This document shows positions 1 to 2,260 of a DNA stretch of 64,000 nt, piece after piece; positions within the stretch are counted from its first letter, which is position 1, and every line of letters begins with the position of its first letter. Position numbers and translations under genes: made by a program. The notes beneath the pieces were generated by a model. The model worked only from the letters and a program-made list of their open reading frames with translations. It had not been told where the DNA came from and made no database searches. The DNA comes from Phycisphaera sp. (GTDB lineage: Bacteria; Planctomycetota; Phycisphaerae; Phycisphaerales; SM1A02): NCBI GenBank assembly GCA_016124975.1, contig WGMP01000020.1, forward strand, positions 1 through 64,000. Reading direction: 5' to 3'.

Positions 1-898
1 CGGCAGCTTCAACGCCGTCAACGAGCAGACGAACTACGTCGAGACCGTTGGCAGCGGGTCGACGGGATCGGTGCCTGGGACCTTCGCCATCACCCACGAC
101 GCCGCCGGCAACGTCCGCACCCGCGAGACCGTCGCGGGCGGGAACCGCCTCGCCTACCGCCACGACCGCTGGGGGCGGCTGACGGAGGTCAACTTCGAGA
201 TCAAGAACACGGCGGGATACGAGGCGAAGCCCCGCGCCCGCTACCGCTACAACGCCCTCGGCATGCGCGCGCTCGTCGAGCGCGACGCGGACACCACCGA
301 CGGCAACAACACGATCAACGAGCGCCGCTACCTCTACTACAACGCAGCGTGGCAGATCGTCGAGGAGCACGTCGACGCGGGGTTCGCCTCCGCCTCCGAC
401 CCCGTCTCCATCGACCGCATCGTCCAGAACATCTGGGGCCTCCGCTACATCGACGACCTCGTCCTCCGCCGCGTCGACGCGAACTACCCCGGCTCCGGCC
501 CCCCGAGCTTCGCCGACACCACCGCCGGCGACATCGACTGGGAGCAGTACCTCACGGACCACCAGTTCAGCGTGGTGGCGGCCGTCGGCCGCACCGGCAC
601 CCTCGCCTTCCGCATCGCCTACGACGCCTTCGGCGAGGCCCGCCACCGCCTGGGGTGCCGGGTCGCTACCGGGTACTTGCGGGTACCAGCGGGTAGTTTC
701 CTGGCACCGCGTGATAGCGCGGCGCTCCGTTCGGGAAACTGCACACAGCGCGAGAACTCCCGGGTCGCGCCACTCGACTCCCTCCTCTCTCCGTGGTGCC
801 GGGTACCTCGCGGGTTCCAACGGGTACCGCGCGGTCGCTGCGCGGCACCGCTTCCGCGGCCGAAAGAAAGACCCCGCCGTTGGGCGGGGTCGTTCTGA
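1..898 (+). CDS. RHS/YD-repeat protein, 3' end only
   Basis: The reading frame enters from upstream (codons in phase with base 2), so only the C-terminal part is visible. Residues up to about base 655 show typical RHS/YD spacing: YRYNALGMRALVERD, RRYLYYNAAWQIVEEHVD and finally IAYDAFGEARHR. RHS proteins are large secreted or surface proteins whose beta-strand repeats form a shell, often around a toxin tip. The usual sequence after a YDAFG core motif is absent. From about base 656 the frame runs through GGTACC-type short repeats and then through a copy of the tRNA terminator, so the last 80 or so residues look non-native. The gene may be truncated or a remnant. The family call is good for the first 650 bases; the true C-terminus is uncertain. 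Confidence 0.7.
   Translation, partial: GSFNAVNEQTNYVETVGSGSTGSVPGTFAITHDAAGNVRTRETVAGGNRLAYRHDRWGRLTEVNFEIKNTAGYEAKPRARYRYNALGMRALVERDADTTDGNNTINERRYLYYNAAWQIVEEHVDAGFASASDPVSIDRIVQNIWGLRYIDDLVLRRVDANYPGSGPPSFADTTAGDIDWEQYLTDHQFSVVAAVGRTGTLAFRIAYDAFGEARHRLGCRVATGYLRVPAGSFLAPRDSAALRSGNCTQRENSRVAPLDSLLSPWCRVPRGFQRVPRGRCAAPLPRPKERPRRWAGSF
655..850. repeat. Cluster of short CGGGTACC-like repeats
   Basis: Units close to CGGGTACC or CGGGTTCC recur at about 674, 681, 804, 815 and 823, in two blocks that both begin GTGCCGGGT. They separate a recognisable RHS sequence from the tRNA 3'-end duplication. No function is assigned. Confidence 0.5.
870..891 (-). terminator. Second copy of tRNA-Cys intrinsic terminator
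   Basis: A perfect 9-bp stem with a GTTG loop, followed on the minus strand by TTTCTTTC. It is identical to the copy at 963-984 and probably backs it up. Confidence 0.75.
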
Positions 899-962
899 AG
901 GTCGCGGTGGGATTTGAACCCCGCGAGCGAAGCGAGCTCAATCCCACCGCGGCCGAAAGAAA

Positions 963-984
963 GACCCCGCCGTTGGGCGGGGTC
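963..984 (-). terminator. Intrinsic terminator of tRNA-Cys
   Basis: A 9-bp GC stem (GACCCCGCC paired with GGCGGGGTC) with a 4-base loop lies 8 bases after the tRNA 3' end. It is followed on the minus strand by TTTCTTTC. Confidence 0.85.
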
Positions 985-992
985 GTTCTGAA

Positions 993-1065
993 GGTCGCGG
1001 TGGGATTTGAACCCACGAATCACGGATTTGCAATCCGTTCCCTTAGGCCACTTGGGTACGCGACC
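993..1065 (-). tRNA. tRNA-Cys (GCA)
   Basis: The 73-base minus-strand sequence folds into a full cloverleaf. It has a 7-bp acceptor stem (GGTCGCG with CGCGACC), a D-arm closed by CCC/GGG, an anticodon stem ACGGA/TCCGT with loop TTGCAAA, and a T-arm GTGGG-TTCAAAT-CCCAC. The anticodon is GCA, which reads cysteine codons UGC/UGU. CCA is not encoded. It delivers cysteine to the ribosome. A strong terminator follows directly, so it is a single-gene transcript. Confidence 0.95.
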
Positions 1066-1081
1066 GTGGCTTGGACGCGGA

Positions 1082-1113
1082 ATCATACTCGCTCCGATCG
1101 GAGGCCGCGTCAA
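1082..1113 (-). promoter_or_regulatory. Possible tRNA-Cys promoter with palindromic spacer
   Basis: Reading the minus strand, TTGACG (1108-1113) and TATGAT (1082-1087) lie upstream of the tRNA, but the 20-base spacer is longer than the usual 16-18. The spacer contains the perfect 12-base palindrome CTCCGATCGGAG (1092-1103), which could be an operator. Confidence 0.4.
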
Positions 1114-1243
1114 TGCAAACCCGCCGCTCGGAGGGAAGAACCGTGGACGGACCCGTTCCTACAGTCGGCGTAGGCCGATTTTCCGTGCCTTCCGTGGCTT
1201 GCGCGCTGCGGGTCTCGGGAAGAAACTGCCGAAGACACCTCTG

Positions 1244-2260
1244 ATGAAGCCGCACGCGCACACACCCACCTTGCTCGCCGCAGCCGCAACGGCGCTCGCC
1301 TTGGTTCTCGTCCCCGTCGGGGCGGTTCGCGCGCAGGGCACCTCGCAGCCTGGGACACCGCCTCCTGCTGCGGCGCCTGGCGCGGGATCGGGCGCCGCGA
1401 AGGGCGCCGGCTCGGGCACCGCACCGTCGGCTCCCTCGGGCACGGAGGTCCTCGGCTTCCGCCTTCCGCTGCTCCGCGAGGGCAGCATGGTGAACCGCGT
1501 CCACGGCGACATCACGCTCGACCCTGGCGAGCGGCACTGGCTCTTCCGCCCGCTCAAGCCGGAGGCGGGCAACCTGCGACGCGAGTTCGTCTTGCTTCCC
1601 TCGCCGACGCTCGAGGAGATGCTGCGGACGATGCAGCTCTCTCCCTCGCCCGTTGAGTTCGAGGTGTCTGGGCGCGTCTTCATTTACAAGGGCCGCAACT
1701 ACCTGCTGCCCGAGTTCGCGCCGCCGATCGTGCGGTTCGATGTGAAGCCCGGCGAGACGCCTCCCGCGAACGCGGCCGTCGAGACGGCGCCGAACGGAGC
1801 ATCGAAGTTCGTTCCCGCTGCGGGGGCTGCGGGCGATGGTGGCGCTGCAGACGCGGATGATGCAGCCGTGATCGACCTTGAGAAGCGGCTCGTCGAGCGC
1901 GTTGGCCGCGCGCCCGCGGAGCGGCTCACCGAGAGCCTCGAGTCGCGCGAGGCGCGGCTCGCCAAGGAGCGCGAGCTTCCGGCGCCCGGCGCGCGCATCG
2001 TGCTGCGTGCGGGCAAGATCTCGCGCGACCCTCAGACGGGCTCGTGGCGCTTCGTGCCAGAGCAGGCCTCGGGCGTGGGCGATGGGTCGGTCGAGATCCT
2101 TCCGTGCCTGATGCTCGAGCGGCTCGAGTTGGCGACCCGCGAGTCGGACGCGCCGCCGATGGTGCTCCTCTCGGGCACGCTCACGGTCTTCGAAGGGCGG
2201 ACCTACCTGCTTCCCACGAGCTTCCGACGCGCCCGCGAGGGCCGTGGGATCGGGCCTTGA
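1244..2260 (+). CDS. Exported hypothetical protein with duplicated YLLP motif
   Basis: This 338-residue protein has an N-terminal signal peptide ending near AVRAQG (about residue 31). A Gly/Ala/Pro-rich linker follows, to about residue 66. Two related segments follow: VSGRVFIYKGRNYLLPEF near residue 141 and LSGTLTVFEGRTYLLPTSF near residue 308. This suggests an internal duplication of a small beta-rich unit. Between them lies a charged, probably helical stretch rich in Arg and Glu. The ATG at 1244 is chosen because it begins the hydrophobic signal; the open frame upstream crosses the tRNA gene. I do not recognise the family. The likely location is the periplasm. Confidence 0.75.
   Translation: MKPHAHTPTLLAAAATALALVLVPVGAVRAQGTSQPGTPPPAAAPGAGSGAAKGAGSGTAPSAPSGTEVLGFRLPLLREGSMVNRVHGDITLDPGERHWLFRPLKPEAGNLRREFVLLPSPTLEEMLRTMQLSPSPVEFEVSGRVFIYKGRNYLLPEFAPPIVRFDVKPGETPPANAAVETAPNGASKFVPAAGAAGDGGAADADDAAVIDLEKRLVERVGRAPAERLTESLESREARLAKERELPAPGARIVLRAGKISRDPQTGSWRFVPEQASGVGDGSVEILPCLMLERLELATRESDAPPMVLLSGTLTVFEGRTYLLPTSFRRAREGRGIGP

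What the first reader, a model, noticed from the sequence alone, without database searches (positions are those of the whole stretch)
854..1065. Duplicated tRNA-Cys 3' end and terminator with a self-palindromic scar
A perfect 68-bp direct repeat carries the last 22 bases of tRNA-Cys and its terminator. The first copy ends inside the T-loop and folds back on itself. tRNA 3' ends are standard integration sites, and an RHS remnant lies next to it. This could be an attL/attR-like scar of a lost element or a hotspot for accessory genes.
Basis: partly seen in the sequence, partly recalled or inferred. Interest (0 to 1): 0.6.

Follow-up and report, generated by a model that had tools for sequence, protein, structure and literature searches.

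The report
tRNA-Cys tail-and-terminator hairpin repeat
Behind this bacterium's cysteine tRNA gene, the gene's own tail and stop signal are copied a second time through a hairpin joint; the same layout follows tRNA genes in close relatives, in E. coli and in salt-loving archaea, so it looks like a small recurring DNA module and not a scar of one lost virus.

Summary
In detail: a perfect 68-bp direct repeat (854-921 / 947-1014) carries the last 23 nt of tRNA-Cys(GCA) (992-1065, minus) and its terminator. In tRNA sense the order is tail - terminator - inverted tail - short GA-rich hairpin - tail - terminator. Nine of 16 genomes of the genus show this joint (four lack it, one probable, two undecidable). 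Copy number varies, up to at least three units; in two genomes a dispersed 167-bp mini-element sits inside the unit. One relative has the same design at tRNA-Ser and tRNA-Gly. E. coli tyrTV (Rfam RtT RNA, 178-bp units) also has tail, inverted tail, GA-type hairpin and tail. So do most haloarchaea sampled: 98 of 116 genomes match. There the direct arm copies the local tRNA's tail in 24 of 27 cases (0 of 620 when tRNAs are swapped), and units are present, absent or reordered between species. The integration-scar reading is partly supported: the place is a variable, tail-delimited insertion/duplication site, but I saw no integrase, no lost large element and no RHS cassette between copies. The mechanism is inferred. 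I file it as a new variant of the tyrT/RtT kind of tRNA-tail repeat.

The parts
992..1065 (-). tRNA-Cys (anticodon GCA)
   Evidence: ARAGORN; Rfam RF00005 64.2 bits
992..1014 (-). tail copy 1 (t): T-loop to discriminator, inside the tRNA gene
   Evidence: 68-bp repeat; sequence
963..984 (-). terminator hairpin 1, followed by T-rich stretch 955-962
   Evidence: sequence; inverted repeat I2
938..954 (-). inverted tail (t'): complementary to acceptor 3' strand, T-stem and part of T-loop
   Evidence: inverted repeats; swapped-tail controls
922..937 (-). joint hairpin s; 923-937 on the plus strand is GCGAGCGAAGCGAGC (GC-GA-GC-GAA-GC-GA-GC); its 13-nt part GAGCGAAGCGAGC is single in this genome
   Evidence: folds only on the GA strand
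899..921 (-). tail copy 2 (t): last 23 nt of tRNA-Cys repeated
870..891 (-). terminator hairpin 2 (identical to terminator 1)
854..861 (-). short stub of a second inverted tail (CCGCGGCC on plus), then unrelated sequence

Best explanation
The feature is a two-copy, tail-delimited hairpin module behind tRNA-Cys: tail - terminator - inverted tail - GA-type mini-hairpin - tail - terminator. By architecture it belongs to the kind of repeat known behind E. coli tyrT/tyrV (RtT units). Shown: the anatomy, its variation in copy number among congeners, the same layout in E. coli and haloarchaea, and, in haloarchaea, presence/absence and reordering of units at one tRNA. Inferred mechanism: the tRNA tail is the recombining unit. 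The terminator and the joint fold in single-stranded DNA, the inverted tail arises or is kept by fold-back copying of the tail during replication, and the direct tail copies then let units be added, lost or exchanged by recombination between tails. A mini-element can jump into such a unit. No product or host function is shown; the module need not do anything for the cell.
For: Tail copy and inverted tail exceed swapped-tail controls. In the genus the joint is present in 9 of 16 genomes, with 0, 1, 2 or at least 3 units. Identical or near-identical terminators in the copies of G000, G008, G005 and G011 point to tandem duplication. The same layout at two tRNA-Ser genes and a tRNA-Gly gene of G004, with arms following each tRNA. 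E. coli K-12 tyrV: three further tail copies 178 bp apart, each unit with GGGGAAGGATG, close to the inverted tail, and a GAGCGCCAGCGA hairpin (hairpin tested in one unit). Haloarchaea: 98 of 116 genomes match the palindrome pattern, the pattern read backwards 0; 27 of 32 palindromes read lie within 400 bp downstream of a tRNA; the direct arm matches the local tRNA in 24 of 27, swapped 0 of 620. tRNA-Asp in one genus: 22 of 29 loci with tail copies, 7 without, the same flank modules directly behind the tRNA in some species and behind a later tail in others. GA hairpin core in 28 of 44 haloarchaeal joints (shuffles mean 4.5, max 12) and 9 of 10 of the genus (mean 0.45, max 3).
Against: No replication or recombination intermediate is seen; all is inferred from end products. 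The joint sequence s is not templated by the tRNA, which simple fold-back copying does not explain. In haloarchaea the inverted arm beyond the T-loop is not tRNA-specific (mean 3.1 of 9 against 2.6 swapped), unlike here. My attempt to show which terminator of G001 is the native one failed: the proximal one scored higher with all three empty relatives tested. Joints within each group are related sequences, so the GA-core counts are not independent. Likeness to E. coli and haloarchaea may be convergence.
Confidence: 0.55

Rival explanations
1. Scar of site-specific integration: the two tails are attL/attR-like sites left by a lost or non-autonomous element moved by a tyrosine recombinase that uses the tRNA tail.
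For: Exact tail boundaries; presence/absence and mixed unit types at one haloarchaeal tRNA and a mixed array in L383; haloarchaeal integrative elements do duplicate the tRNA 3' part (PMC7921747, passages).
Against: No element or integrase seen between copies here or in the congeners read; an inverted tail and GA joint are not parts of ordinary att sites (recalled); the terminator is duplicated too. No profile search for integrases was made.
Confidence: 0.25
2. Functional RNA: read-through transcripts fold the inverted tail onto a tail copy (a mimic of the acceptor/T-arm minihelix), serving termination, 3'-end processing or, like RtT RNA, a small RNA.
For: Strong fold (z -8.2; -35.8 kcal/mol for the joint); E. 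coli units are annotated as RtT RNA.
Against: Absent in 4 of 16 congeners; the GA strand is antisense to the tRNA here but sense in haloarchaea; the joint lies behind a complete terminator; no expression data.
Confidence: 0.12
3. Plain replication slippage without any special module: a chance tandem duplication of tail plus terminator.
For: Only tRNA-Cys is affected in this genome (1 of 46); both terminators identical.
Against: The inverted tail and GA joint recur in nine congeners and, by architecture, at other tRNAs and in other groups.
Confidence: 0.08

Closest known systems
E. coli tyrT/tyrV 178-bp repeats (RtT RNA, Rfam RF00391; rttR/tpr)
   Same: Units behind a tRNA gene, delimited by direct copies of the tRNA tail; an inverted-tail stretch and a GA-NN-loop-NN-GA hairpin inside; tandem; copy number differs between strains (1-9 places in 4680 of 5426 genomes, no match in 746).
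   Different: Different tRNA, unit 93 bp and not 178, terminator inside the unit, inverted tail covers acceptor and T-stem strand, no sequence match to RF00391.
Partial tRNAs next to full tRNAs in haloarchaea (noted for Haloferax gibbonsii, PMC7921747, passages)
   Same: A tail remnant directly behind the full tRNA; in the haloarchaea read here an inverted T-loop arm and often a GA hairpin lie between them.
   Different: The haloarchaeal inverted arm is mostly the T-loop consensus only; many tRNA types; several joint types; the GA strand is the tRNA sense strand.
tRNA-integrated elements (tyrosine recombinase att sites)
   Same: Direct repeat of the tRNA 3' part at the far end.
   Different: No integrase, no cargo, 25 bp between copies, palindromic joint.

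Membership tests
E. coli tyrT/RtT-type tRNA-tail repeat (as a kind) | direct copies of the tRNA's own 3' tail behind the gene | tested here: met
   two copies 93 bp apart here, at least three in G005, 178-bp spacing in K-12
E. coli tyrT/RtT-type tRNA-tail repeat (as a kind) | inverted-tail stretch and GA-type hairpin within the unit (a feature found in this work, not a published definition) | tested here: met
Rfam RF00391 RtT RNA | match at or above the gathering score | tested here: not met
   four RtT matches in K-12, none in L001, L033, L038, L349, L386; none in window 600-1300 even at E up to 5
Integrative element scar (attL/attR) | an integrase or cargo between the copies in some relative | tested here: inconclusive
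   only a 167-bp dispersed mini-element, in G003 and G011; some arrays are cut by contig ends and no integrase profile search was made
Integrative element scar (attL/attR) | recombination of the two sites by a recombinase | not testable with these tools
   needs an experiment
Integron attC | RYYYAAC/GTTRRRY core sites (motif recalled) | tested here: not met
   joint arms read GTTCAAAT and ATTGAGC; fourth base of GTTRRRY is not a purine
Integron attC | IntI integrase in the genome | not tested
   no search made

The most novel reading that the evidence does not exclude
There is a class of tiny non-coding mobile modules, shared in design by Bacteria and Archaea, that live behind tRNA genes. Each is bounded by copies of the local tRNA's 3' tail and carries a folded single-strand joint (inverted T-loop arm around a GA-NN-loop-NN-GA hairpin). 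They are gained, lost and reordered like gene-less integron cassettes, with the tRNA tail as landing site; the E. coli RtT repeats and the window's tRNA-Cys repeat are members.
Probability: 0.3. Interest if true: 0.85.

Novelty: new variant of a known kind. Interest (0 to 1): 0.6.

Why it matters
tRNA 3' ends are read as integration sites, and partial tRNAs as scars of lost elements. If many of these are instead self-standing tail-delimited hairpin modules, annotation of 'partial tRNAs' and att sites needs revising. The E. coli RtT repeats would gain relatives in design in another bacterial phylum and in Archaea. The haloarchaeal tRNA-Asp arrays, with presence/absence between congeners, make the gain and loss mechanism testable in culturable organisms.

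Tried and rejected
Genome-wide repeat: rejected; the joint motif is single in this genome and the 241-bp query hits only this locus of it. Wider spread in the order: among 251 Phycisphaerales genomes (listing cut) the rows I read outside this genus looked like tRNAs' own arms or stray matches (judged by eye); only genus rows show the joint. Which terminator of G001 is native: the test went against my guess. In G030 an inverted tRNA-Cys tail repeats behind the tRNA without a direct copy: kept as a lead only. Genome-contig scan: besides this genus and the two haloarchaea, a Deltaproteobacteria MAG (L288) has tRNA-Ser tail copies, not followed. Papers: searches listed nothing on the tyrT repeats in the held library; one search listed eight papers for the joint motifs, by their titles unrelated; some searches gave the haloarchaeal papers, of which I saw passages only (PMC3119063, PMC7921747, PMC8371274, PMC3623002). 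The 1978 description of the E. coli 178-bp repeats, the stable GCGAAGC-type DNA hairpin and sheared G.A pairs are recalled, not read.

Full report
Observation. The 68-bp perfect direct repeat is real. It lies at 854-921 and 947-1014; the second copy contains 992-1014, the last 23 nt of tRNA-Cys(GCA) (992-1065, minus), and the terminator hairpin 963-984. Read in tRNA sense: tail, terminator, inverted tail (938-954), a 16-nt joint (922-937), tail, the same terminator, and an 8-nt stub of inverted tail. In a scan of all 46 tRNAs of the genome, with tails of other tRNAs as control, only tRNA-Cys is flagged. The joint motif occurs once in the genome. Rfam sees only the tRNA above threshold.

Relatives. 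Of 61 genomes searched, 59 have a match to the 241-bp query, mostly the tRNA itself. Reading the 16 genomes of the genus, nine have the joint: G000, G001, G002, G003, G004, G005, G008, G011, G012. In G005 the array contig lacks the tRNA itself, and in G003 the array continues on a contig apart from the tRNA. G006 is probable: one contig ends inside the tRNA tail and another ends in a tail-plus-terminator remnant. G007, G013, G014 and G015 have no tail copy. G009 (no match) and G010 (contig ends 32 bp behind the tRNA) are undecidable. G005 has at least three units. G002 has only the start of the second tail, G004 none of it. In G003 and G011 a 167-bp sequence with inverted ends sits between tail and terminator of a unit; it is a dispersed mini-element with matches in 9 of 16 genomes of the genus. 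Several contigs end in the unit, so copy numbers are lower bounds.

Other tRNAs. In G004, of 32 tRNAs read (of 44 found), tRNA-Ser(GCT), tRNA-Ser(GGA), tRNA-Gly(CCC) and tRNA-Cys have an inverted tail that follows their own tail sequence; the Ser and Gly loci also have a hairpin joint ending in the tRNA's own T-loop. In 251 Phycisphaerales genomes, the rows I read outside the genus do not show the Cys joint (listing cut, judged by eye).

Other groups. Of 31 of their tRNAs read (of 88 found; the sample favours high-scoring tRNAs and includes the two seed loci), 14 were flagged for direct or inverted tail copies. In their family 98 of 116 genomes have GGATTYGAA..TTCRAATCC, with no match of the pattern read backwards. 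Of 32 such palindromes read, 27 lie within 400 bp downstream of a tRNA, of 12 isotypes. The nine bases after the T-loop agree with the local tRNA in at least 8 of 9 positions in 24 of 27, against 0 of 620 swapped pairs. The inverted arm beyond the T-loop is not tRNA-specific (3.1 against 2.6 of 9). This last point differs from the window.

Presence and absence. At tRNA-Asp in one haloarchaeal genus (32 genomes; 30 loci fetched, 29 with the tRNA), 22 have one or two tail copies within 900 bp and 7 have none. Flank modules that follow the tRNA directly in one species follow a later tail copy in another: with a local score of 30 or more, the distal flank matches an empty locus in 12 of 22, the proximal flank in 11 of 22, both in 7 (my count from the table; no shuffled null was run). 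So units are gained or lost and reordered with the tail as boundary. It does not show which enzyme does it.

E. coli. Behind tyrV of K-12 the 19-nt tail recurs three times at 178-bp spacing, and each unit holds GGGGAAGGATG, close to the inverted tail; Rfam RtT matches four times in the region. The unit is found in 4680 of 5426 E. coli genomes with one to nine places. These repeats are thus the nearest known thing; the inverted stretch and hairpin are our reading.

The joint. In the window the plus strand reads GCGAGCGAAGCGAGC, which folds as GC-GA-GC-GAA-GC-GA-GC with two facing G-A steps left unpaired by the energy model; the other strand does not fold. The core GA-NN-loop-NN-GA is in 28 of 44 distinct haloarchaeal joints (dinucleotide shuffles mean 4.5, max 12), 9 of 10 of this genus (mean 0.45, max 3) and one tyrV unit. 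Members are related, so this is a signature and not a set of independent events. In haloarchaea the GA strand is the tRNA sense strand, here it is the antisense strand, which argues for a DNA-level and against an RNA-level common role.

Mechanism. Shown: anatomy, variation, tail-delimited gain or loss in haloarchaea. Inferred: fold-back copying makes or keeps the inverted tail; direct tails recombine. Identical terminators here favour tandem duplication. A tail-targeting recombinase remains a live rival (0.25). No function is shown.

The duplication is right, the hotspot idea is partly right, the lost-element and RHS ideas are not supported.

Noticed in passing
G011:C103:7362-7528 (L038), G003:C138:50-216 and 305-471 (L032): 167-bp dispersed mini-element with inverted ends TGGGTTGGGTC/GACCCAACCCA; 6 matches in the window's own genome, matches in 9 of 16 genomes of the genus.
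   Followed up: partly
window 655-850: GGTACC/GGTGCC-rich repeated stretch between the RHS remnant and the tail copy; the RHS frame runs on through it into the repeated terminator to 898.
   Followed up: no
window about 2288-2398: Short tandem repeat ATCACGCGCGGCGAYCTGC, about six copies, between two convergent frames (seen).
   Followed up: no
G030:C2 around 187,600 (L026): Another genus: three tandem units behind tRNA-Cys each carrying an inverted acceptor tail (GCCGAGGCGG) without a direct tail copy.
   Followed up: partly
L203, L247: Contigs labelled Candidatus Kuenenia stuttgartiensis have the lengths of contigs of two Phycisphaerales congeners (G001, G008); the labels look wrong.
   Followed up: no
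L419:13744-13909: A contig of the viral collection holds a tRNA-Glu followed by a haloarchaeal-type tail unit.
   Followed up: partly
L536 (E. coli SK1144): The second tRNA-Tyr is followed after 16 bases by a desaturase gene, not by an annotated RtT unit; 746 of 5426 E. coli genomes had no match to the unit.
   Followed up: no
haloarchaeal loci L326-L415: The stretch directly behind many tRNAs also seems to contain GA-NN-loop-NN-GA hairpins of recurring types, apart from the joint (seen by eye).
   Followed up: no
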